From contig OZ020524.1 of the NCBI GenBank assembly GCA_963971425.1, forward strand, positions 19,149,022 to 19,213,021: a DNA stretch of 64,000 bases, in the 5' to 3' direction. The position numbers and the translations under genes were made by a program. This DNA is from Bryoerythrophyllum caledonicum. Its lineage: Eukaryota; Streptophyta; Bryopsida; Pottiales; Pottiaceae. Positions within the stretch are counted from its first letter, which is position 1. Each line of letters opens with the position of its first letter. Below are positions 1,335 to 49,830 of this stretch, piece by piece. The notes under the pieces were generated by a model. That model saw only the letters and a list, made by a program, of their open reading frames with translations. It was not told the origin of the DNA and ran no database searches.

Positions 1335-3182
<1,848 letters not shown>

Positions 3183-3253: not shown

Positions 3254-5272
3254 ATGCCAAATGTCTTTCACAACCATCCAAAAACTCACAAAAAACTATC
3301 AAAAATATATTTCATTCGGAATACTATAAAACTCCACCCCGAATATCAACACCTAGCATCCTCCTTTGCACCACTTCTAAAAAATAACCACATACTTCAC
3401 CAATCTTATTCCACCCTCTACCCCAACATTTCCCGCTACATACATCAAAAAAACAACCACCCATCCACACATATCTTATTCGCCATAATTACCACCCTCC
3501 ACCCTTCAATAGACGAATGCAACAACATCACCAACCAACATGCTACCAACACAAACCCAACACATTGGACAAATATGCTACTAAACACCCTATCGTCTCT
3601 ACATAATCCCCCTGAAAGACATATAGATACACTCCACCCATACTCCAAATTCCTAGCGGAAAACCAACACCTTTTTGAACACAAAACCTCTCTCCATAAT
3701 GACCTATATAACTTTATTCATAGCCAAACCACTCCCCCTTCCCCCGATGAACTACAACTAAAATTTCCCTGCTTCCCGCACAATCTTATCCTTGAAGCTC
3801 TCAGATGCTTTGAACCAATTCATGCTTACACACACCCCACCCCGACACCCGCCTATATTTCCCCTCCACCTTGTAACCACGACAATATAGACAATAGAAA
3901 CACACATATAATTACATGGAACGTGTCAACGTTAAACACTGCTTTACCATGCATCCACAATCTTACCGCACACACCAACACACCACCCGCCATAATTGCC
4001 ATACAAGAAACTAAACTAACCGCTACTAAATCCACAAAATACATCCAAAAAACATTCCCCGATTATAAACTTATATTTAATAACACCCACTCTCTCACAC
4101 GATGCATCCAACAACGGAGGCCATATACACCGGCAAGAGGAGGTCTACTCATGCTCATACACCAATCATATGCTTTCCCCGGGAATATTACCAAAATTCC
4201 TACCCCGGCTAATATACCGCCATATCTTCAAATTATTGAAATTACTAACCGACCTCTCCAACCATGGCTAATTCTTCATCTATACATGCCCTCACACATA
4301 GAAAACGTTAGGCTTATTCCGGAAATCCAAAATTCCATCACTTCACAAATCAACACACACACTAACCATACAATAATACTTTGTGGAGACTTTAATCGAG
4401 ATATTGCCCTTATTGGACGACAAAACGGAGGGTTGTTTACCCCCCCACTTGACATAGATTATCAATGGCAAAATTATACGGATAACCTGGAACTATATTT
4501 AATCCCAACCGATACACAATACTCTCGTCAAGGAGGACTTAATTACACACACACTAGCCTAATTGATGGATTCTACATTAAAACACCCAACCGTATCCAA
4601 TATACATCTCTCACCAATACCACAACCAACTTAAACTTGGACCACTTCCCAATCCAACTAAACATACCTCACAACATCCTTATAAGTAGACCTCCCACAA
4701 CCATCAACTCAAATGACATCAAAATACTTAACCCCATCCCAAGAGAAAACCTGGATAACTTTAACACAATATTCTTTGAAAAAAACTCACTACAAATAGA
4801 CTCCTTCACAAATACTCTTTCTAACCACCAACACCTCACACAAACACAATGGCAAGAAGCTTGCACAACTCTTGACAAACTTATTAAAGAAATCTCTACT
4901 ACATTAGAAAAGACTTGTAAAGCACCCCCGATTCCACAACTCACTCCTAGAACCTCGAAGCAAGGAGGGTATCTCCCGAGAAAATTAGCAAAAAAATGGA
5001 AACAACATCTTGTCACATACCACACTATTCGTAAAACAATCTATATTGCAAAAACCAACCAAAATTGGCGAACCCACCCCGTATTTTCTGAACTACAAAA
5101 CCTCCGTCACCCTCAAATCCCACAAGTACCACCATCTAACACCCCTCACGAAGACTGGCTAAAAGACATTGCAACCATTGCAAAAATTGCCAACAAAGAA
5201 GCTCGGAAAATTACTACAAAATACACAAGAGAATGTGTCAAAAAAGCCATCTCTAAATATTGCCAAATATAA
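3254..5272 (+). CDS. LINE ORF2 segment 1: AP-type endonuclease
   Basis: N-terminal part of ORF2 (672 residues to the premature TAA at 5270-5272). The first 210 residues are an unassigned His/Pro/Asn-rich region. The exonuclease-endonuclease-phosphatase fold follows: HIITWNVSTLN at about 3905, IQETKL (catalytic Glu) at about 4004, YMPS, then ILCGDFNRDI (Asp and Asn) at about 4376, IDGFYI, and the C-terminal LDHFP (Asp-His) at about 4640. All expected catalytic positions are present, so this enzyme would nick target DNA for target-primed reverse transcription. Translation resumes in the same frame directly after the TAA, so the stop is probably a point mutation. ATG 3254 directly follows the 2A motif. 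Confidence 0.88.
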   Translation: MPNVFHNHPKTHKKLSKIYFIRNTIKLHPEYQHLASSFAPLLKNNHILHQSYSTLYPNISRYIHQKNNHPSTHILFAIITTLHPSIDECNNITNQHATNTNPTHWTNMLLNTLSSLHNPPERHIDTLHPYSKFLAENQHLFEHKTSLHNDLYNFIHSQTTPPSPDELQLKFPCFPHNLILEALRCFEPIHAYTHPTPTPAYISPPPCNHDNIDNRNTHIITWNVSTLNTALPCIHNLTAHTNTPPAIIAIQETKLTATKSTKYIQKTFPDYKLIFNNTHSLTRCIQQRRPYTPARGGLLMLIHQSYAFPGNITKIPTPANIPPYLQIIEITNRPLQPWLILHLYMPSHIENVRLIPEIQNSITSQINTHTNHTIILCGDFNRDIALIGRQNGGLFTPPLDIDYQWQNYTDNLELYLIPTDTQYSRQGGLNYTHTSLIDGFYIKTPNRIQYTSLTNTTTNLNLDHFPIQLNIPHNILISRPPTTINSNDIKILNPIPRENLDNFNTIFFEKNSLQIDSFTNTLSNHQHLTQTQWQEACTTLDKLIKEISTTLEKTCKAPPIPQLTPRTSKQGGYLPRKLAKKWKQHLVTYHTIRKTIYIAKTNQNWRTHPVFSELQNLRHPQIPQVPPSNTPHEDWLKDIATIAKIANKEARKITTKYTRECVKKAISKYCQI

Positions 5273-7024
5273 GAAATTAGCCCAAAAAAGATTAACAGAA
5301 AAGTCTTTAAAAATAATACAAACCTGCCACTAGACTGCGTTTTAGATCAAAACAACAACATTCTAACCAGCCCAGAGGACATTGCAAACGAAATACATTT
5401 TCAACAATCCATAAACAATAGACCATCCACCCCCCCATGTCACTTCCAACCACAACATACATCAACATGCACGTGCGGAGTTAGGCAATACCCGTGGCAT
5501 GATTTGGACAGATTTACCATTGAAAAAAGAGGCGAACCAACAACACCTCTCCACACATATTATAACATAGACACTTATAACATGTGCCTAAAAAATTTGG
5601 GAACCAACAAAGCCCCCGGCCCGGACCACATACCTAACTCAATCCTAAAAAATATGCCCCCTAGATTCCATGACCTTCTATCATTATTCTTCCTTCATTG
5701 TTACAAACAAAAATCCATTCCCGCATCTTGGAAAACAAGTTTAACAATCTTATTATACAAAAAAGGCAACCCATCCGTGCTACCTAAGGGCCATCGACCG
5801 ATTGCTTTAGCTAACACCATTTACAAATTATATACTAGCACACTAACATCAATATTATCGGCCTACCGGGAAAAACACCAAATATTACACGAAAGCCAAG
5901 AAGGGTTTAGAGCCGAGAGAAGTACCACACGGCAACTACAAACCCTCATTGCCGCTCTTGAGGATGCAAAATTCACTAATAATGACATTTATATACTCTA
6001 CATTGACTTCAAAAACGCTTTCGGATCCATTGATGATCCCCGATTGCTAGCCATTATGAGCGACCTCGGGTACCCGGAAGACGCAGTCACACTAATTGGC
6101 AATATATACTCCCAATCTAACACTACATACGTCGGAGAATTCTTTGGTAAAACACGCCCCATCCACATCCAACGTGGTACCATCCAAGGCGACACATTGA
6201 GCCCATACCTCTTTATTATTTTTCTAGAACCTCTATTGAGATGGCTTCAAAGAGGTAATAATGGCTACACATTTGGCACCTCAAAAGTAACCATAAACTC
6301 GGCCGCATATGCCGATGATCTAGCGGCCATCTCCGGACGTCTTAAATCACTCCAAATCCAATTAGACAAAATAGACAAATTTTGTCTATGGACCGGGATG
6401 GAACTTGGGGTCCAAAAATGTGCCGTAACTGGATGCCCTAACAAATCCAAAATAAACCCAACCGCCTTCAAAGCCCTTATCCAAGCTACCAATATCCACT
6501 ATCGTAACCAACCAATTCCGGTTCTCAACCAAAACCAACCCTACATATACCTTGGAATAAACCTAGTCCCATCGTTAAAATGGAAAATTCAAATTCACGC
6601 TACCACTACAAAACTTATTAAACAATGTAATGAACTTACACTAAGTCCGGCCACATTGCAACAAAAAATAAAAATGATTGATACAGTCATACGACCGGGT
6701 ATCTCATACAGTTTCTATGCGGTCCCTTATTCCATGCCCGCCATAAACAAACTTGATAAACAAATCATAGCCATACAAAAGAAAGTATGCGGACTCCCTA
6801 AATGCACGCCTAATGTCATAACACAACTCCCCCACGAACTATTCGGATTAGAAGCTTTTTCCCTCAAAAATGCCTATCTATGTTGCATTGGTGAACAACT
6901 ACAAAATGCACTTAACGACAAAGGACGACTAGGACTAATTTACACTGGACTCCTTCGGCACACCCTTGCCATTTACGGAGGAGCACAATACCTACAAAGA
7001 CTTAAAAAATCTGATTGCCTCTGA
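5273..7024 (+). CDS. LINE ORF2 segment 2: reverse transcriptase
   Basis: Continues in the same frame after the TAA at 5270; the linker after that stop already reads like the pre-RT region (NRKVF, then LTSPEDIANEIH). RT motifs appear in order: NKAPGPDHIP (about 5608), PKGHRPIALANT, ESQEGFRAERST, IDFKNAFGSID (first catalytic Asp, about 6003), GTIQGDTLSPYLF (about 6176) and the YADD box (about 6308). All catalytic aspartates are intact. The family carries out target-primed reverse transcription of its own RNA. The frame ends at 7024, but frame 3 takes over at an A6 run (7004-7009) with plausible coding to about 7077, so 7010-7024 is out-of-frame read-on. Confidence 0.9.
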   Translation, partial: EISPKKINRKVFKNNTNLPLDCVLDQNNNILTSPEDIANEIHFQQSINNRPSTPPCHFQPQHTSTCTCGVRQYPWHDLDRFTIEKRGEPTTPLHTYYNIDTYNMCLKNLGTNKAPGPDHIPNSILKNMPPRFHDLLSLFFLHCYKQKSIPASWKTSLTILLYKKGNPSVLPKGHRPIALANTIYKLYTSTLTSILSAYREKHQILHESQEGFRAERSTTRQLQTLIAALEDAKFTNNDIYILYIDFKNAFGSIDDPRLLAIMSDLGYPEDAVTLIGNIYSQSNTTYVGEFFGKTRPIHIQRGTIQGDTLSPYLFIIFLEPLLRWLQRGNNGYTFGTSKVTINSAAYADDLAAISGRLKSLQIQLDKIDKFCLWTGMELGVQKCAVTGCPNKSKINPTAFKALIQATNIHYRNQPIPVLNQNQPYIYLGINLVPSLKWKIQIHATTTKLIKQCNELTLSPATLQQKIKMIDTVIRPGISYSFYAVPYSMPAINKLDKQIIAIQKKVCGLPKCTPNVITQLPHELFGLEAFSLKNAYLCCIGEQLQNALNDKGRLGLIYTGLLRHTLAIYGGAQYLQRLKKSDCL

Positions 7025-9594
7025 TCTCCCATTACCCGAACACTCTTTCTACTCAAAACAGAAGGCCAAACATTTCTAAAAAGCACCTAGAAGAATTCCT
7101 ACTAGGCCCCGCGCCGCTAGAACAAAATTGGGCAAATGAAATTCATAACCTCCCTAGACTTGACCGTCAATTATCCGCCAAACTCCTACAAAAACTTTTT
7201 TCCGCAAACATTACGAATCTAAAACAAATTACTCTACCAAATGGAACACACCTTATGGACGACAAGAACTACAAAACATTCTATGGTACCCCCCATAAAC
7301 TAATAAAAAGTGCACTAAGCATTGCTAAACAACTATTTTGTCACCCTACATGCCTCCCTATATGCCCCAACCCTTGCAACGCTCATGCCCCACCTTACAC
7401 ACTAAAAGACCCGTACATCATTGGTCACCATGACATCCACCCCAACACTAACCTCCCACCTACTCCTCCAATTTCGCCACACTCACAACCACAGGCCCCT
7501 CCACCACATATATTAAAAAATCCTTCCATGTATCCTATAAACAACATAACCGCACACAAACAAAAAAAATACATTGACTCCAACAACATAAGCAAACAAT
7601 ATACGTCATACCTATGCCATTGGCTCCACAACAACACCACCTACGCCAAATGGCTCCCACAAAAAAATCTTTTCCCTTGGCACAACCCAAATACTTCCGT
7701 ACATAACACCAAAATTCTCATACAATACTACCTTAGAACTCAAAACAATCACTACCTAAACATCATACAAATACATCACCCACAAGTACAGCCCCGAGAT
7801 AGAAGATTTGTCACGCCACCTCTTATTATCCCCCTCCTCAACATCTGTACAACCGAATGCAACCCCGATACCGACATCCTCACACAAACAAATACAATAA
7901 AAATACAACAAGATAATGCTCACATTTACGAAGGAAATGGAAGACACCTAATAACCATACCAATCGATAGACTACAATGGTTGTGGAACCAATATCACGA
8001 TGCACTACAAACCCCCATTTGCATTGAACCAATACCCCAAACATTTGAAACAGAAATTGTTTGGCTATATCAAAGATATAAATACCGTATACCCAAAAAT
8101 GACCCCCTTAAAAATGCACACTACGCATTACCCGATCCCATCTTAAACTACCTTATTACATCTATGAATATTACACACTCATACTTCTCATCCCCCGTTA
8201 CATGCTCCACAAAAATTTCAAAATTCTACTCTCCATTCGAACGAGATAAGATTTTTGGTTCTCTTGGAAAAGCCTTCGATCATAAATGGAGCGGTATAGG
8301 CCTTGCACACCCTCACAACGAAGTAGAAACTCAACAAGCAATACATTGGGCGCGCCTAGCGGCAAACAACGATCCCAACCACAACATCACCATTATTATT
8401 ACTCCCGACACTCAATGGTACCAAAACTCTAACCCACATTTAGGCCCATTCCCGGACTCCCACATCATAGGACTATTTGAAGCGGACTCTATGACATACA
8501 AAGAACCCACTATACCACCGCAAATACAAACACCCGGCCTTGAAGCAGCAACCTTACGTATCCTATGCATACATCACCAAACTCAAGAAATAGGTAATAT
8601 GGAAAACTTCACTCATCTCACTTTAATAGCAAAAAATCTAAATATTAACAAGGTATATACCGCTATTGCCCCTCCCACACCAATTTCAATCCGTGTAAAC
8701 CGTAACAAAAAATGGTCTAAAACCCCCCACATAAACTTCCCCGCACTACCAATTACCGAAACGAACCTCCCATTCCCCAACTACCAAACCAATACCGTCC
8801 TTAAATTCGACCCCAACTTTAGCTACTATACTGACGGCTCCTTCAAAGAACCAACCAAAGTAAGCCCGGGACATTGGCACCGTGAAAAAGCCGGTTATGG
8901 GGTATACAATTCATCCAAACAAATTAAATTAGGTAAAAGACTACATGGACTCCAAAATATCCTAAGAGCCAAAATGATGGCTATACACAAAACCCTTAAG
9001 ATAATCACCACTCAATACCCAAACGAACCAGCTCACATTTTTACAAATTGCATAAATGTATTATATCTCCTTAATACACACATAAAACACCCCACTTTAC
9101 ACAACAATCACCCGGACAAAACCATCCTCACCTCTATGGTTGTAATGCTTCAAAATCGCACACAGATTACTACACTCCACAAAGTCCGTGCTCATGCCAA
9201 TATTGACGGCAATGAACAAGCCGATAAACTAGCAAAGGAAGGAAGAGAAAAAACCCACAAAAATGCCGAACACCCATATGAACACGCCCATGCCACCCCA
9301 TATTACTTTCATAAATATGAATGGCCCTCTATGGGAGAAACTCCAGACAAAGGCCCCATACGTTTCTTAGACAAATACCTCAAAAAACATGATCTTGTAA
9401 ATAACCTGGAAAAACTCACAGAAAATTTCCCCAATATTGATAAATGGACCGGCAACCCAAATATTCATAACGAATTGTCCAACAATTTTTGGAAAAACCC
9501 CATAATTACGGACGCACAAATCACATGCCTAATCAAATTCCGCACCGGACAATACATGGGAAATGCCCGCAAACAACTCTTTTTTTGGAATTGA
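7015..9594 (+). CDS. LINE ORF2 segment 3: linker, PCIF1-like methyltransferase remnant and RNase H
   Basis: Third frame segment; genuine coding probably begins after an A5 run near 7080. A Pro/His-rich linker has a Cys cluster at about 7338-7385. At about 8130-8530 lies a region resembling the PCIF1/CAPAM m6A-methyltransferase core: FSSPVTC, KFYSPFERDKIFGSLGKAFD, KWSG, then A-H-P-H-N where family members carry N-P-P-F, followed by a hydrophobic strand ITIIITPDTQWY. RNase H follows at about 8815-9270 with YYTDGSF, RAKMMAI, IFTNC and VRAHANIDGNEQADKLAKEG. Two of its acidic catalytic positions are changed (expected E reads K, expected D reads N). The frame breaks at a T7 run (9580-9586) before the C-terminal endonuclease. 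Confidence 0.75.
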   Translation: MPLISHYPNTLSTQNRRPNISKKHLEEFLLGPAPLEQNWANEIHNLPRLDRQLSAKLLQKLFSANITNLKQITLPNGTHLMDDKNYKTFYGTPHKLIKSALSIAKQLFCHPTCLPICPNPCNAHAPPYTLKDPYIIGHHDIHPNTNLPPTPPISPHSQPQAPPPHILKNPSMYPINNITAHKQKKYIDSNNISKQYTSYLCHWLHNNTTYAKWLPQKNLFPWHNPNTSVHNTKILIQYYLRTQNNHYLNIIQIHHPQVQPRDRRFVTPPLIIPLLNICTTECNPDTDILTQTNTIKIQQDNAHIYEGNGRHLITIPIDRLQWLWNQYHDALQTPICIEPIPQTFETEIVWLYQRYKYRIPKNDPLKNAHYALPDPILNYLITSMNITHSYFSSPVTCSTKISKFYSPFERDKIFGSLGKAFDHKWSGIGLAHPHNEVETQQAIHWARLAANNDPNHNITIIITPDTQWYQNSNPHLGPFPDSHIIGLFEADSMTYKEPTIPPQIQTPGLEAATLRILCIHHQTQEIGNMENFTHLTLIAKNLNINKVYTAIAPPTPISIRVNRNKKWSKTPHINFPALPITETNLPFPNYQTNTVLKFDPNFSYYTDGSFKEPTKVSPGHWHREKAGYGVYNSSKQIKLGKRLHGLQNILRAKMMAIHKTLKIITTQYPNEPAHIFTNCINVLYLLNTHIKHPTLHNNHPDKTILTSMVVMLQNRTQITTLHKVRAHANIDGNEQADKLAKEGREKTHKNAEHPYEHAHATPYYFHKYEWPSMGETPDKGPIRFLDKYLKKHDLVNNLEKLTENFPNIDKWTGNPNIHNELSNNFWKNPIITDAQITCLIKFRTGQYMGNARKQLFFWN

Positions 9595-10291
9595 AAGATT
9601 CCCTACAATAACATGTCCAATTTGCAACACCACGGACCCGGACACATGGCTACATGTCTTACTCAAGTGCCAAAACCCCCATATACACTCATTAATTGTC
9701 AAAAGACATAACAAAGCCGTATGGGCTCTTCGCAAACTACTTATTTCATCAACCAAATCCCGGTGCTTCATTCTCATGAATGCCGGAACCTTTAATGACA
9801 ATCCACAAGAAAATACGGTCCCCCCTTGGCTATTACCATGCATTTGTCACACTCAAAGATGCCACTGCAATGCAAGATTCAAACCGGACCTACTATGTGT
9901 TAGAGGGCTTTCATACAAAGACCCACCACCAAACCACATAGACCCGAGTCTCACTATTCAGTTTATTGAATTCACATATTGTAATGATAGATTCTCTCCG
10001 GACACTATTGCAAACAAAACAAACAAATACCAACCATTACTTGAAGATATTCAAGCATTAGGATGGAAAGTAGACCCCCTCATTGTCATCACCGCAGGTG
10101 CTAGAGCCACCACCTTCATTCCCTCAATGACAACCCTTGAAGAATCATTTAAAATCCCCATCACTTCAATCAAAACCACCTTTTCTAACATTAACACTAT
10201 CGCAATTCAACATGCAATGTCGATACTCCTGCATAAACGAAAACTTGAAAACAACCAACCCCTTCCTGACACATCGAACCCCCCTCCATAG
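9563..10291 (+). CDS. LINE ORF2 segment 4: restriction-like endonuclease (RLE)
   Basis: C-terminal end of ORF2 in its own frame; true continuity with the preceding segment is at the T7 run 9580-9586. A CX2CX9HX4C knuckle (CPIC at about 9613, then WLHVLLKC) is followed by VKRHNKAVWAL, the conserved RHN-type motif after the knuckle in R2-like elements. KPDLL (PD) at about 9880 and IEFTYC (E) at about 9966 follow, with a downstream Lys (KTNKYQPL). This is the R2/CRE/Dualen restriction-like nuclease signature. With the AP-type domain at the N terminus, the element encodes two unrelated endonucleases. The stop is at 10289-10291. Confidence 0.82.
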   Translation: MPANNSFFGIERFPTITCPICNTTDPDTWLHVLLKCQNPHIHSLIVKRHNKAVWALRKLLISSTKSRCFILMNAGTFNDNPQENTVPPWLLPCICHTQRCHCNARFKPDLLCVRGLSYKDPPPNHIDPSLTIQFIEFTYCNDRFSPDTIANKTNKYQPLLEDIQALGWKVDPLIVITAGARATTFIPSMTTLEESFKIPITSIKTTFSNINTIAIQHAMSILLHKRKLENNQPLPDTSNPPP

Positions 10292-10524
10292 TCCTATATT
10301 TGCACTATTCCGTACACGCCCTCCCTCTTTTAAAAGACCTCTGAGACCTTGGGTCCTTTGTTATTGGTTGCTTGTTACCGTGGACATAGTGTCTACCTTC
10401 AAAAAGAGGAAGTAGTTCCATTCTACTAACCCATGCCCGGTGGGCATGGATTTGGTGGTGGAATGAACGGACACTTTATTCACGCCGGCCCTTAGCCTTT
10501 GGGGACCGGCGTTCTTCTTCTTCT
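10292..10524 (+). other. LINE 3' UTR with conserved 3' tail (about 10385-10524)
   Basis: Non-coding. The last ~140 bases (GGAAGTAGTTCCATTCTACT, then GGGCATGGATTTGGTGG, then CCGGCCC...GGGGACCGGCGTTC) are clearly homologous to the 3' ends of the SINEs at 41.7-42.2 kb. The CCGGcCC / GGGGACCGG pair can form a stem-loop, a likely recognition structure for the reverse transcriptase by analogy with other LINE/SINE pairs. Confidence 0.75.
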
Positions 10525-25135: not shown

Positions 25136-25461
25136 GGCTACGCCCTACACTACTAAATAATCAATCATCACTAGAGTTGATGTTGGATAGAACCCCAAAC
25201 GTTGCCCATTTGTACGCGTTTGGCTGCCAGATGTCCACCCCTGTTCCAGAACCACAGTAGAAAACAATACCAGCCCATAGGAAACAAGCCATATACCTAG
25301 GCTACGACTCCCCTAGCATCATCAAATATGTATTCCCGGACTCGGACTCGACACACAAGGCTCGCTTTGAGAACTGCAGGTTCGTAGAAACCATTTTTTC
25401 TCAAGCAGTTAAGTCAGACCAGTCCACCGAACTAAACTTCAGAGCTCCGGAAACCCTTACA

Positions 25462-26805
25462 ATGAACCCAGATCCTAGAACAACCCTAGCTGACACTGAA
25501 GTCAAGAAAATTTTAGACATACGAGCGCTAGCGGATAAAATCCCAGAGGACCTAAGTACAGGCCTAAAGATCATTAGAAATCCCCTACCCGGGACAAGAA
25601 ACCAACTGGTTCCACCCCCAACGAAAAAGAGGAAGCCGCACGCTACACCCTCAACCTCAAAACCAAGTCACGCTAAACCAGCGACACTACACACTGAGTG
25701 TATGGATAGAGAGTTCAAATCAGGGATCCTATGCAATGAACTAGAAACTCCAGGAGGAGCACTAGTAGCCACGTTCATTTCACAGCTAGCAAGCTTGGAA
25801 CATGAGCCAGTTACCTTAGAGCAGGCGAAGGCAAGCTCTGAATCGCTTCAATGGAAGGCAACCCTCCACGCCGAATACGCGTCGCTAAGAAAACGCGCAG
25901 TATTTGGACCCCTGATCACGAATCTCCCTATCAAACCTATCGGCCACAATCTGATTTTTACTCGTAAGAGAAACGAGCATAGGGAGGTCGTCAGATATAA
26001 AGTAAGGTTAGTCGCCCAAGGTTTTACGCAGAGACCCGGGATCAATTTCGAACAAACCTTCTCTCCGGTGATGGACAACACCTCATTCAGGTACATCTTA
26101 AGCCTAGCTGTCCAGTTGACACTGGAGACCCAACTACTTGACGTGGTTACGGCATACCTTTACGGAAATTTGGACGTCGACATACACATCCGGCCGCCAC
26201 CGGATTTTCTCAACGAGAGCATACTCGCCAAACCAGGCAAGCACTCGGGGCTGAAGCTACACAAGGCCTTGTATGGCTTGAAGCAAGCTGGGCGTATGTG
26301 GTACCACCATCTTTGCACCTTTTTACTTTCTCATGGCTACATGAATCATCCAGCTCTTCCATGTGTGTTTGTTCTACGTGATAGCTCTGGTTTCATCATA
26401 CTAGCTGTGTATGTGGATGATTTAAACCTAGTTGGAACTAAAAAGCTCTGCTCTCACGTGGACACTATACTAACATCTACATTCAAGATGAAACTACTTG
26501 GTAGAACCACTTTCTGTATTGGATTACAGCTTCGCCCCCTCCCAGACGGGAGTACTCTACTTCATCAGGAAGCCTATGTGAAGAAACTTCTACGGAGCTT
26601 CAACATGGATCAGGCCCACCCGCTGGCAGCACCAATGATGGGCCGAAGTAAAACAAGCGAAGACCCCTACAGGCCATGCGAGGAGAGCGAAGAGGAAGTC
26701 GATAGGTCACGATACATGACGGCTGTCAGCACTCTACTTTATCTCGCAACTCACACCAAGCTGGACATATCTTTTGCCACCATCGTCTTAGCAAGACACA
26801 TATAG
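25462..26805 (+). pseudogene. copia reverse transcriptase remnant
   Basis: RVT_2-type RT: SLQWKATLHAEYASL, YKVRLVAQGFTQRPGINFEQTFSPV, LDVVTAYLYGNLD, LHKALYGLKQAGRMWY and the AVYVDDLNLVG active site. In D-V-V-T-A-Y-L-Y-G the usual AF of the copia DVxxAFL(Y/N)G motif reads AY. The frame ends at TAG 26803-26805; the same frame continues with copia sequence (KPAARHWNGVKHLLRYLRGT), so the TAG is a point mutation. Confidence 0.88.
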
Positions 26806-27752: not shown

Positions 27753-28945
27753 ATATCAAGCCAAGTCAAAGTCTACTAATCCACTCAAAGCAAGGAAGAA
27801 AATGAACCATTTGTTTGACTTCAAACACTATAATCTTTCAATCCGTGCGGTCAAAGTTTATGAATTTTTGTGAGTATGTTGCTTAGTAAGTCTTAATTGA
27901 GATCCTACGGTCAAAACTATAAATATAAAGTTTTATTTTCTTCCTTACGCATTGCACTAGAATCAACAATTTTGAAGTCTTTTTTGTGTGAAATTGTCAC
28001 GGTCCCTTACGGGTTAAAAATGTTTGGTTTTGTTTTCACGTATGGGTTTTCTGAATTGTGGTACTGAAAATAGAAACCATTGGAGTTGTAGAAGGGTAGT
28101 CTCTCCTTCTATGAGTTCAAGAAACACAAAAAATTGAGTTAAAAATCAGTAAGACTGGTTGATCCAATGTATGTATGTTGCTGGGTTGTATTGGAATTTG
28201 GTAAGCCACTTGCAATGGTCACAAATTCACTTAACCCCTAAGGTACCAAGACAGTTTTACACCAAAAACACTTCAAACTAAATGGATTCTAGTGCAACGA
28301 ATAAAGAAGGTAACAAAAACTTTTATTTTTAGTTCTGACCGTAGGATCTCAATAAAGGCTTATTAAGTAATACATGTTCAAAAATTTCATAAACTTTGAC
28401 CGCACGGATTGAAAGATTAGAGTGTTTGAAGTCAAGCAAATGGTTCATTTTCTTCCCTGCATTTAGTGGATCAGCAGACTTTGACTTCAAATGGTGTCCA
28501 AAAATTTCACTACAAAAGGTCTAAATCTATTACCATCTTGTTAAGCATGATGTTAGCTCCTTACACACCAATTTTTAGAGGTAGAGACCGGGTGTAGCAT
28601 ATTCAAAAGAAGTGTGCAAGGAGTGGAGGCTCTAAATTTGTTAATTCACACTTTTATTTTTTTTGAACTTAATATGTTTTTGATTGATAATCCGAATGGT
28701 TAATATGAAGGTTTACATTACATATTGATGTGGAAAAAATAAAAAGTGAAAAATATGAAGATCTCTAGGTTTTATGTGGAAAAGAAGAAGTTTTTTTGGT
28801 ACCTTGCCCGACAATGAGTGACAATGTGTGAAAATGTTTGACTTGGGTTGGTATGCTATTTTTCACTAAAGACAAGAAATTTTTTTTGACAATATGTAGG
28901 GAAATGATATTACTTGCGAGTACTGAAAATCTCACTTTCAATAGA

Positions 28946-34771: not shown

Positions 34772-37195
<2,424 letters not shown>

Positions 37196-41175: not shown

Positions 41176-41689
41176 AATCTACCACTAAATTTCAATATGT
41201 GAAATGTAACAACGACCAAAACTTATTGTTATTGACAATTGGTATTTAAGTTGACATTTAATGTTTGTTACATTAGTAGGGTTATTGACATTTAGTGTTC
41301 AATTTCGTAATTAGTGTTGCAAATACTAAATATTGACTTTAGTATAATAGTAGTAGTAAGAACTTTGGGCCCTTTAGGGAGTCGGTGTGAATAGAGTGTC
41401 TGTTCGTTTCCGTCACTATATCAATGTCCTCACGACACGGACCAATATGGAGTTGCGGGCGACGCAAGAAAATATCAAGCTCCTTATCACGACACTACAG
41501 CCAATCCTAGCATTCAAGTCTGGTTCCGAAAATTGCGCCGACGCACCCGCGCATGCGTTGCGTCTTTTATCCCCTTTCATTGTTGCAAGGATCTTTTTAA
41601 ACTTTCTTTCTATATTTTAACCGTTGTCAAGAAATTTTGTTATCCAACCAATTTTTATGATTTATTGATTTTGCTGCAATATGGAGAAG

Positions 41690-41866
41690 AAGAAGAATTT
41701 GGGTCCTCAAAGGAGACAGGCGTGAATAAGTGTTTATTCATTTTCTTCACTAAGCCTATGGCCACGGGACATAGGTTAGTATAATGGAACTACTTCCCCC
41801 TTTTGAGGATAAACAATTTTTTTACATAGAAGACTTCCCTATACTAAATGCCTTAGAGACAGGCAC
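41690..41866 (-). mobile_element. SINE copy A (5'-truncated, minus strand)
   Basis: The reverse complement contains GGAAGTAGTTCCATTATACT, CCCGTGGCCATAGGCTTAGTG, a block ending ATTCACGCCTGTCTCC, then TTCTTCTTCTTCT. These match, in order, the LINE tail at 10405-10524. The tRNA-like head is missing. Confidence 0.72.
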
Positions 41867-48149: not shown

Positions 48150-49830
48150 TTTGAACCTCCAATCATAGCACAATTTTTTTGAATATGCTACACCCCTTGT
48201 CTACCTCTAAAAACTTTTGCACTACACAAGATCTAAATCCAATACCATCATGTTAAGCATGTTGTTAGTTCTTTGATGAAATAGCATATCAATCCAAGTC
48301 AATTATTTTCACACATTGTCACACATTTTCGGTCACGGTACCAAAAACATTTCTACCTTTCCACATAAAACTTTGAGATCTTTGTATGATTCACTTTTGA
48401 TTTTTCCTACCACATTATGTGGTGTAAACCTTCTTATTGACCATTTGGATTCTCATTTCAAATGATATCAAGTTCACAAAAAAACATAACGTGAATAGAG
48501 AATTTTTGAACCTCCACTCATTGCACAATTTTTTTGAAAATGCTACACTCCTTTTCTACCTCTAAAAATTGGTATGCTAGGAACTAACATCATGCTTAAC
48601 TATATGCTAATTAATTGAGACCTTTTATAGTGCAAAAATTGGACACCAATTGAAGTCAAAGTCTGCTGATCCAGTAAACGCAGGGAAGAAAATGAGCCTT
48701 TTCTCTACTTCAAACATTATAATCTTTCAATCCGTGCGGTAAAACTTTATGAAATTTTTCATGCATATTACTTAATAAGTCATAATTGAGATCCTACGGT
48801 TTAAACTACAAAAAAAACTTTCTTTTTTTATCCATGCTAATTGCACTAAAACAAGCATTTTTAACAATTTTTGGTTGAGATATTCTCTACATAACTTATG
48901 GACCAAGGTACTTAGGGTATCAATATCGAGGGTATCACCACCAGGGTATGACTTCCTGGGTACCATAACCGGTTATCAACAAGGTATAAATTAGGGTTTG
49001 GGATTAGGNNNNNNNNNNNNNNNNNNNNNNNNNNNNNNNNNNNNNNNNNNNNNNNNNNNNNNNNNNNNNNNNNNNNNNNNNNNNNNNNNNNNNNNNNNNN
49101 NNNNNNNNNNNNNNNNNNNNNNNNNNNNNNNNNNNNNNNNNNNNNNNNNNNNNNNNNNNNNNNNNNNNNNNNNNNNNNNNNNNNNNNNNNNNNNNNNNNN
49201 NNNNNNNNAGTCCAAATTTGTCTTTTGAACTTTGGTCCTTTTACTTTGTTTCTCTTTATGTTTAAACTTTTTACATATCATGTTAAATTTTCATGCTATA
49301 TGTAATACGAAGATACTTGGAAGTTTTTATCACATGATTTTAACAAATGATCATATAAATTTTATGCATGTTTTGCAGGTTTCTTCGAAGGTTGAAAAAC
49401 ATGTCCAACAACAGCGACGAAATGGTGATTTAATGTTGAACCGCATTATACATCGGTGCGTGTACCGCTAACACCTGCAACGTACCTTGAGGTAAATAAT
49501 TATTTTTATACAAATTCAAAATTGATTCTTGATTGATCTTCTGTACCATGTTTTTTGTAGAATAACCTTTATGTTGATGTACAAATACGTTTTTTAATTA
49601 GCAATTGTAACAAATTCCAATGGTGTCACTAATAGCAAGTAGACAACATGGTTTATTTTCTTCCCTAGGTTGAGTCGATTCCTATCGTTTCAGTTCACTT
49701 GATTTCAAAAGTTTGCTTCACACATGATCTAGATTCATTATCATCATGTCAAGAATGATATTAGTTCCTTGTACACCAATGTTTAGGGGTGAAGAAAGGT
49801 GTAGCATATTTAACCCAAAAGGACCAACTG
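48150..49830. mobile_element. Second foldback element copy, containing the assembly gap
   Basis: The left part (about 48150-48880) matches the left arm at 22.1-28.0 kb: CACATTGTCACACATTTTCGG, CACATAAAACTTTGAGATCTTTG, AACATCATGCTTAAC, GTCAAAGTCTGCTGATCCA, TTTCAATCCGTGCGG and GAGATCCTACGG. 49660-49820 matches the inverse (TTATTTTCTTCCCT, ATCATCATGTCAAGAATGATATTAGTTCC, GGTGTAGCATATTT). The middle includes 200 N. Confidence 0.65.
49009..49208. other. Assembly gap (200 N)
   Basis: Exactly 200 N, a conventional placeholder length, so the true distance is unknown. The flank on the left is a GGTATC/GGTACC-rich patch. Confidence 1.

What the first reader, a model, noticed from the sequence alone, without database searches (positions are those of the whole stretch)
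3254..10291. One LINE encoding two unrelated endonucleases (AP-type at N terminus, restriction-like at C terminus) in a plant-like genome
The sequence shows EEP motifs (IQETKL, GDFNRDI, LDHFP) and, after RT and RNase H, a CX2CX9HX4C knuckle, an RHN motif and PD...E. Published Dualen elements of Chlamydomonas have this dual architecture and were proposed as intermediate between the two LINE groups. Finding it beside an SRPK gene of land-plant type would extend the family, or its survival, into streptophytes. Motifs are seen; family placement is inference.
Basis: partly seen in the sequence, partly recalled or inferred. Interest (0 to 1): 0.85.

Follow-up and report, generated by a model that had tools for sequence, protein, structure and literature searches.

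The report
Land-plant LINE with two endonucleases
A very abundant, recently active jumping gene in what is probably a land-plant genome makes one large protein that carries two unrelated DNA-cutting enzymes, a remodelled relative of an mRNA-cap methylating enzyme and, just before it, a peptide that separates proteins during translation; elements with two such cutters were known mainly from green algae.

Summary
The window copy is a dead member (two stops, two frameshifts in ORF2) of a very large LINE family. Seven fetched relatives have an unbroken ORF2 of 2,340-2,345 aa: AP-endonuclease, reverse transcriptase (RT), PCIF1-like domain, RNase H, CCHC knuckle, restriction-like endonuclease (RLE). 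Both nucleases are under purifying selection (dN/dS 0.09-0.14; 0.06-0.10) and keep their motifs. The moderate-confidence C-terminal model has PD-(D/E)XK topology and matches R2 endonucleases among others; the RT scores best against R2 (120 bits; L1 77). Two copies differ at 1 of 7,271 sites, so activity is recent. Plastid rbcL-accD order says land plant, though a second plastid type is in the assembly. Filed as Dualen/RandI-like: the dual-nuclease definition is met; RT phylogeny and comparison with Chlamydomonas Dualen were not possible. New variant of a known kind.

The parts
1335..2840 (+). ORF1 remnant (ATG 1335, in-frame TAG 1368-1370; 3' end lost into the microsatellite)
   Evidence: 76-81% aa identical to ORF1 of L040-L045; 87 rows scored of 3,707 first-look candidates in own genome, the window's own among them; only a sub-threshold Pfam match, 0.15, none for ORF1 of L042
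2846..3162 (+). (CAA)n/(CTA)n microsatellite (approximate ends), read as poly-Q/poly-L in the ORF2 frame
   Evidence: sequence; triplet tracts of variable length upstream of 2A in L039-L045
3185..3253 (+). 2A/StopGo-like motif THCKLLIILCGDIETNPGP, followed by ATG
   Evidence: 1,479 exact genomic matches to G-D-I-E-x-N-P-G-P-M, reversed control 0
3254..3901 (+). ORF2 N-terminal region, no accepted domain
   Evidence: KTI12 at 0.011, below cut-off, for the same region of L041; mosaic between subfamilies
3902..4678 (+). AP-like endonuclease (EEP) domain
   Evidence: Pfam PF03372 2.1e-5; best PDB match of the intact copy L041 is L1 endonuclease, 0.0027; dN/dS 0.09-0.14
5270..5272 (+). in-frame TAA, lesion of this copy
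5590..7084 (+). reverse transcriptase region (Pfam core 5759-6562, YADD; outer bounds approximate), TGA at 7022-7024
   Evidence: Pfam PF00078 8.7e-27; R2 is the best PDB match of L041
7085..7090 (+). approximate site of first frameshift of this copy
   Evidence: tblastn with L039 ORF2
8038..8409 (+). PCIF1 (cap m6Am methyltransferase)-like domain; HPHN at 8308-8319 in place of NPPF
   Evidence: Pfam PF12237 2.5e-9; 13 of 13 aligned members; motif place by eye
8821..9246 (+). RNase H domain
   Evidence: Pfam PF00075 1.9e-9; one catalytic E and one D changed in this copy, kept in 7 of 7 intact copies
9580..9590 (+). approximate site of second frameshift of this copy
9614..9670 (+). CX2CX9HX4C knuckle
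   Evidence: kept in the 7 intact copies
9701..10288 (+). restriction-like PD-(D/E)XK endonuclease (KRHNK, KPD 9881, E 9968); stop 10289-10291
   Evidence: AlphaFold2 model of the L041 region and VIA-align matches incl. R2; dN/dS 0.06-0.10
10385..10516 (+). structured 3' UTR
   Evidence: 27 distinct sequences (from 35 matching rows), 40 pairs, 1,070 of 1,080 cells paired, 5 pairs with two-sided change; structure derived from the same sequences; 1,077 core matches in genome
10512..10524 (+). (TTC)n 3' tail, end of element
   Evidence: homology between copies ends at about 10524, flanks differ by eye

Best explanation
The window holds a dead copy of a dual-endonuclease LINE (Dualen/RandI-like) that is abundant and recently active in a land-plant genome. 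Shown by sequence: ORF1; then a low-complexity stretch open in the ORF2 frame; then 2A; then one ORF2 with AP-endonuclease, R2-like RT, PCIF1-like domain with a replaced catalytic motif, RNase H, CCHC knuckle and restriction-like endonuclease; then a folded 3' UTR with a (TTC)n tail. Inferred mechanism: ribosomes enter the ORF2 frame from the end of ORF1 (by frameshift or by reinitiation without AUG), the 2A peptide lets ORF2 start as a separate chain (P-M-P-N...), ORF2p binds its own 3' UTR hairpins, one nuclease nicks the first strand to prime target-primed reverse transcription, RNase H removes the RNA, and the second nuclease serves second-strand cleavage or a different target choice. The PCIF1-like domain most likely serves as an RNA- or cap-binding module rather than a methyltransferase.
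Confidence: 0.8

Rival explanations
1. It is an ordinary Dualen/RandI element: the PCIF1-like domain and the 2A are already present in Chlamydomonas Dualen and only the host is new.
For: Dualen is described as coding for both nucleases (PMC3636483 passage; PMC4640811 passages) and RNase H is reported from Dualen/RandI; green-algal RandI also ends in short repeats, (ATT)n and (CTATTT)n (PMC3747384 table passage).
Against: None of the passages read mentions PCIF1 or 2A in Dualen, but the founding paper (Kojima and Fujiwara 2005) is not held, so this is untested.
Confidence: 0.3
2. ORF2 starts at the ATG right after NPGP, so the 2A peptide is never made and its conservation is a by-product.
For: An ATG follows NPGP in all 9 copies examined.
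Against: The 2A residues are kept while their codons vary synonymously in diverged 5' lineages, and the frame upstream is open far longer than base shuffling allows in 7 of 9 copies, up to 739 codons. A non-coding stretch would show neither.
Confidence: 0.08
3. AP-only LINE with a plain zinc knuckle; the C-terminal nuclease reading is wrong.
For: No Pfam or PDB sequence match for the C-terminal 270 aa; moderate model confidence.
Against: Predicted PD-(D/E)XK topology with the PD and E motifs in place, R2 RLE among the matches, some aligned over knuckle plus nuclease, strong conservation, R2-like RT.
Confidence: 0.05
4. Two elements nested or side by side give the appearance of one dual element.
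For: The window copy has its domains in several reading-frame pieces.
Against: Seven copies have all domains in one uninterrupted frame.
Confidence: 0.01
5. The PCIF1-like domain is still a methyltransferase with an altered active site (HPHN) acting on the element's own RNA cap or on DNA.
For: The substitution is nearly fixed: A/V-HPH in 15 of 18 fetched sequences, window not counted (7 of 7 in L039-L045; L046; 7 of 10 others), with dN/dS 0.10-0.19.
Against: Disrupting NPPF lowers activity of mammalian PCIF1 (PMC6318281 passage); 3 of 4 motif positions differ.
Confidence: 0.15

Closest known systems
Dualen/RandI LINEs (Chlamydomonas and other green algae)
   Same: AP endonuclease and PD-(D/E)XK endonuclease in one LINE, with RNase H (as described in passages)
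   Different: Land-plant host; 2A and PCIF1-like domain are not mentioned in the passages I read; tail (TTC)n against (ATT)n or (CTATTT)n; Dualen sequences themselves were not compared
R2 LINEs (R2Tg, R2 of Platysternon, R2Bm)
   Same: RT similarity; C-terminal knuckle plus PD-(D/E)XK fold match
   Different: R2 has no AP endonuclease, RNase H or PCIF1-like domain and targets 28S rDNA (recalled); here the 3' flanks of 34 distinct places (39 rows printed, some the same copy) look unrelated by eye
PCIF1/CAPAM, cap-specific m6Am methyltransferase
   Same: PF12237 similarity, incl. the F(A/S)SP..C and FGS.G stretch
   Different: Catalytic NPPF reads HPHN; embedded in a LINE protein
2A-bearing non-LTR retrotransposons (Odon 2013, seen only as a citation; L1Tc and CR1-type elements recalled)
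   Same: 2A at the N-terminal side of the AP-endonuclease-bearing protein
   Different: Here 2A lies between an open low-complexity leader, adjoining ORF1, and a dual-nuclease ORF2
Plant L1
   Same: AP endonuclease plus RNase H (RNase H of plant L1: passage)
   Different: RT nearer R2 than human L1; has the restriction-like nuclease

Membership tests
Dualen/RandI | AP-like endonuclease N-terminal to RT | tested here: met
Dualen/RandI | Restriction-like PD-(D/E)XK endonuclease C-terminal to RT in the same protein | tested here: met
   by fold model of moderate confidence and motifs, no sequence-level match
Dualen/RandI | RNase H domain | tested here: met
   four acidic residues kept in 7 of 7 intact copies
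Dualen/RandI | RT branches with Dualen, apart from RLE-only and AP-only groups | tested here: inconclusive
   R2 119.9 bits, L1 77.1, R2Bm 66.3 in PDB search; no tree with Dualen, I, CR1, RTE
Dualen/RandI | sequence similarity to Chlamydomonas members | not testable with these tools
   no eukaryotic collection beyond the own genome; founding paper not held
R2 clade | RLE as only endonuclease, 28S rDNA target | tested here: not met
   AP endonuclease present; 3' flanks differ from place to place by eye
L1 clade | RT nearest L1 and no RLE | tested here: not met
   human L1 only, plant L1 not compared
PCIF1/CAPAM methyltransferases | PF12237 similarity | tested here: met
PCIF1/CAPAM methyltransferases | catalytic NPPF | tested here: not met
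   HPHN; correspondence of the motif is by eye, the PDB alignment stops just before it
PCIF1/CAPAM methyltransferases | methyltransferase fold | tested here: inconclusive
   model failed, pLDDT 41.6
2A/StopGo | core (D/G/C/N)(V/I)ExNPGP (PMC12846837 passage) | tested here: met
   DIETNPGP or DIEKNPGP in 9 of 9 copies; 1,479 in genome
2A/StopGo | separation of nascent chain at NPG/P | not testable with these tools
   needs a translation assay

The most novel reading that the evidence does not exclude
A LINE lineage captured the core of an mRNA-cap m6Am methyltransferase, fixed an altered active site (HPHN) and keeps it under selection, probably to recognise capped or cap-proximal RNA (its own or the host's), while 2A recoding makes ORF2p from the ORF1 message and two nucleases share target cleavage. 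It would be a living intermediate between the two LINE endonuclease groups in land plants, carried in over a thousand copies.
Probability: 0.35. Interest if true: 0.88.

Novelty: new variant of a known kind. Interest (0 to 1): 0.78.

Why it matters
The position of dual-nuclease LINEs has been read as showing that AP-endonuclease LINEs arose by replacement of the RLE (PMC4640811 passage), but they were listed from green algae only in 2015, with cryptophytes annotated in 2025. An abundant and very recently active family in a land plant, with both nucleases under selection, makes the question 'why two nucleases' experimentally open. The PCIF1-like domain and the 2A add two testable functions: RNA-cap recognition by a retrotransposon, and StopGo recoding in a plant-genome element, where a 2026 survey found no natural use in plant viruses.

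Tried and rejected
Relatives elsewhere: RT piece against viral contigs and RLE alignment against viral contigs and genome contigs found none. RLE by sequence: no relevant match in PDB (three weak viral L-protein rows at E 0.8-1.1, none) or Pfam. PCIF1-like fold: model failed, so no fold search was made with it; single-sequence PDB searches with this domain gave nothing. RT tree: not made, no references for most clades. Target-site duplication of the window copy: only an 8-bp match, and similarity to L042 continues upstream of it, so not claimed. 5' end of the window family: not reached; L057 and L058 are 99.9% identical over 3,234 bp that reach the end of L058. A standard slippery heptamer at the ORF1 end: none seen by eye. 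Rfam gathering scan of the window: none; tRNAs: none. Host lineage: not settled. Not held: a 2016 adenine-methylation paper, Kojima and Fujiwara 2005, Odon 2013, one review. Papers PMC4640811, PMC8226300, PMC3747384, PMC12846837, PMC4981915, PMC3636483, PMC4438587, PMC6318281 and PMC12747079 were seen as passages only; all others as search listings. That no held paper links PCIF1 to a retrotransposon-encoded domain rests on the listings (30 of 6,675 shown; 2 of 2; 3 of 3; 12 of 243). Land-plant Dualen: listings (8 of 8 papers; 7 of 7; 30 of 4,305, nearly all off topic; 40 of 178, most on other uses of the letters) show none by title.

Full report
What is there. The window is G000:C12:19149022-19213021 of a 437-Mb assembly. 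On its + strand, from at least 1198 to about 10524, lies one damaged LINE. The copy is dead: TAA at 5270, TGA at 7022, frameshifts near 7087 and 9583, ORF1 stopped at 1368.

Relatives. A search with the C-terminal domain scored 150 rows, the window's among them, of 9,060 first-look candidates; more than 30 lie in frames above 2,400 aa, counted by eye. I fetched 7 copies of this subfamily (L039-L045) and one of a second subfamily (L046). Of these 8, seven have an unbroken ORF2 of 2,340-2,345 aa after the 2A; L045 has the 2A in one frame and the rest of ORF2 in another. L046 is 69-71% identical to the others. L040 and L041 differ at 1 of 7,271 aligned sites; of the 7 copies compared the window is nearest L039 (K2P 0.06). 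In the PF12237 search 42 of the 150 rows share one score (50.6 bits, E 4.0e-11), 33 of them in a 3,087-aa frame (counted by eye), which suggests a young subfamily; only L046 and the 5' part of one more were read. The core of the 3' UTR occurs 1,077 times with up to 2 mismatches (control 0), which at 9-10 kb each would be about 2% of the genome if all were full length (inference).

The PCIF1-like domain. PF12237 matches 13 of 13 aligned members (best 1.4e-14), and all 150 scored hits in the genome pass its cut-off. A profile of the domain ranks PCIF1 (6irx) first in PDB, though only at E 0.77; the aligned part includes F(A/S)SP and FGS.G. PCIF1's conserved NPPF (its disruption lowers activity, PMC6318281 passage) corresponds by eye to HPHN here. 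A/V-HPH is kept in 15 of 18 fetched sequences; three read ADPH, APPH and AYPH. Because the model failed I claim homology, not a tested fold. A conserved pseudo-methyltransferase used for RNA or cap binding is my inference.

2A and expression. Directly before the finding's start is GDIETNPGP, preceded by a hydrophobic stretch; all 9 copies examined have DIETNPGP or DIEKNPGP followed by ATG, with synonymous differences between lineages. The degenerate pattern for G-D-I-E-x-N-P-G-P-M has 1,479 exact genomic matches and 0 for the reversed pattern; the 100 or so listed vary in the degenerate positions. The ORF2 frame stays open 60 to 739 codons upstream of 2A (the stretch is defined by its openness, so the test is the shuffle): no stop-free case in 2,000 base shuffles of the non-repeat part for 6 of 9, 0.4% for L039, and not significant for L042 (28%) and the window (15%); in the same stretches the other frames hold 1 to 40 stops. 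Four of the 9 have no in-frame ATG there. In 6 of 7 copies with both ORFs the 2A frame is -1 relative to ORF1; L042 has the same frame. After the ORF1 stop follow a conserved stretch and 2-3 small hairpins AGTATA...TATACT in 6 of 6 copies, one with a two-sided compensatory change. So ORF2 is probably entered from ORF1 by frameshift or non-AUG reinitiation, with 2A then freeing it; which of the two is open. The L046 copy as inserted lacks ORF1: a 12-bp duplication marks its ends, and it sits next to, apparently inside, an older element with a distant ORF1 (30-36% identical).

3' end. 27 distinct 3' UTRs share a 40-pair predicted structure (1,070 of 1,080 cells paired, 5 pairs with two-sided change; the structure comes from the same sequences). 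The copies end in (TTC)n, with flanks that differ by eye at 34 distinct places. This fits specific 3'-end recognition and dispersed target-primed insertion (inference).

Host. rbcL is followed by accD on contig C821, an order I recall as that of land plants; a second rbcL, angiosperm-looking from memory, is on C590 and another of equal score on C894, so one plastid type may be a contaminant. The window itself carries a protein kinase gene at 35407-36441; that it is an SRPK of land-plant type was not tested. Land plant is likely, lineage open.

Comparison. Works like: R2-type target-primed reverse transcription with an added AP endonuclease. Member of: the definition of Dualen as coding for both nucleases is met, RNase H too; RT position inconclusive; direct comparison not possible. 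In 2015 Dualen/RandI was listed for green algae only; a 2025 annotation reports it in cryptophytes. I therefore call it a Dualen-like LINE, new variant.

Noticed in passing
window 41685-41815 (- strand): 76% DNA match to the 3' UTR at 10390-10524: probably the 3' end of another, older member of the family.
   Followed up: no
L040 against L043 and L044, ORF2 aa 1-240 (L041 is the same sequence, L045 shares the 2A codons): Mosaic: the stretch from 2A to the start of the AP endonuclease is only 44-69% identical while ORF1 of L041 (85%) and the rest (mostly 80-98% in the windows read) are close, pointing to recombination or template switching inside the element.
   Followed up: partly
L046 214-2430: A degenerate second 2A-like motif (GGDINTRPN) precedes the intact one; the 3,087-aa frame has a long repetitive leader.
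   Followed up: no
G000 C821 and C590/C894: Three rbcL hits of two kinds in one assembly (C894 known only by its score).
   Followed up: partly
G000:C10:661486-662199: One copy lies in a 4,622-aa stop-free frame, possibly ORF1 and ORF2 in one frame or a very long triplet tract.
   Followed up: no
window 25261-26802: Copia-type reverse transcriptase (RVT_2, 8.3e-51).
   Followed up: no
window 28317-28861 and 48279-48821: Inverted pair of repeats, 82% identical over 547 bp.
   Followed up: no
L057 1-3600: The ORF1 frame stays open over all 1,200 codons, far upstream of the usual ORF1 start, with no Pfam match; several ORF1 copies lie in 1,604-aa frames.
   Followed up: no
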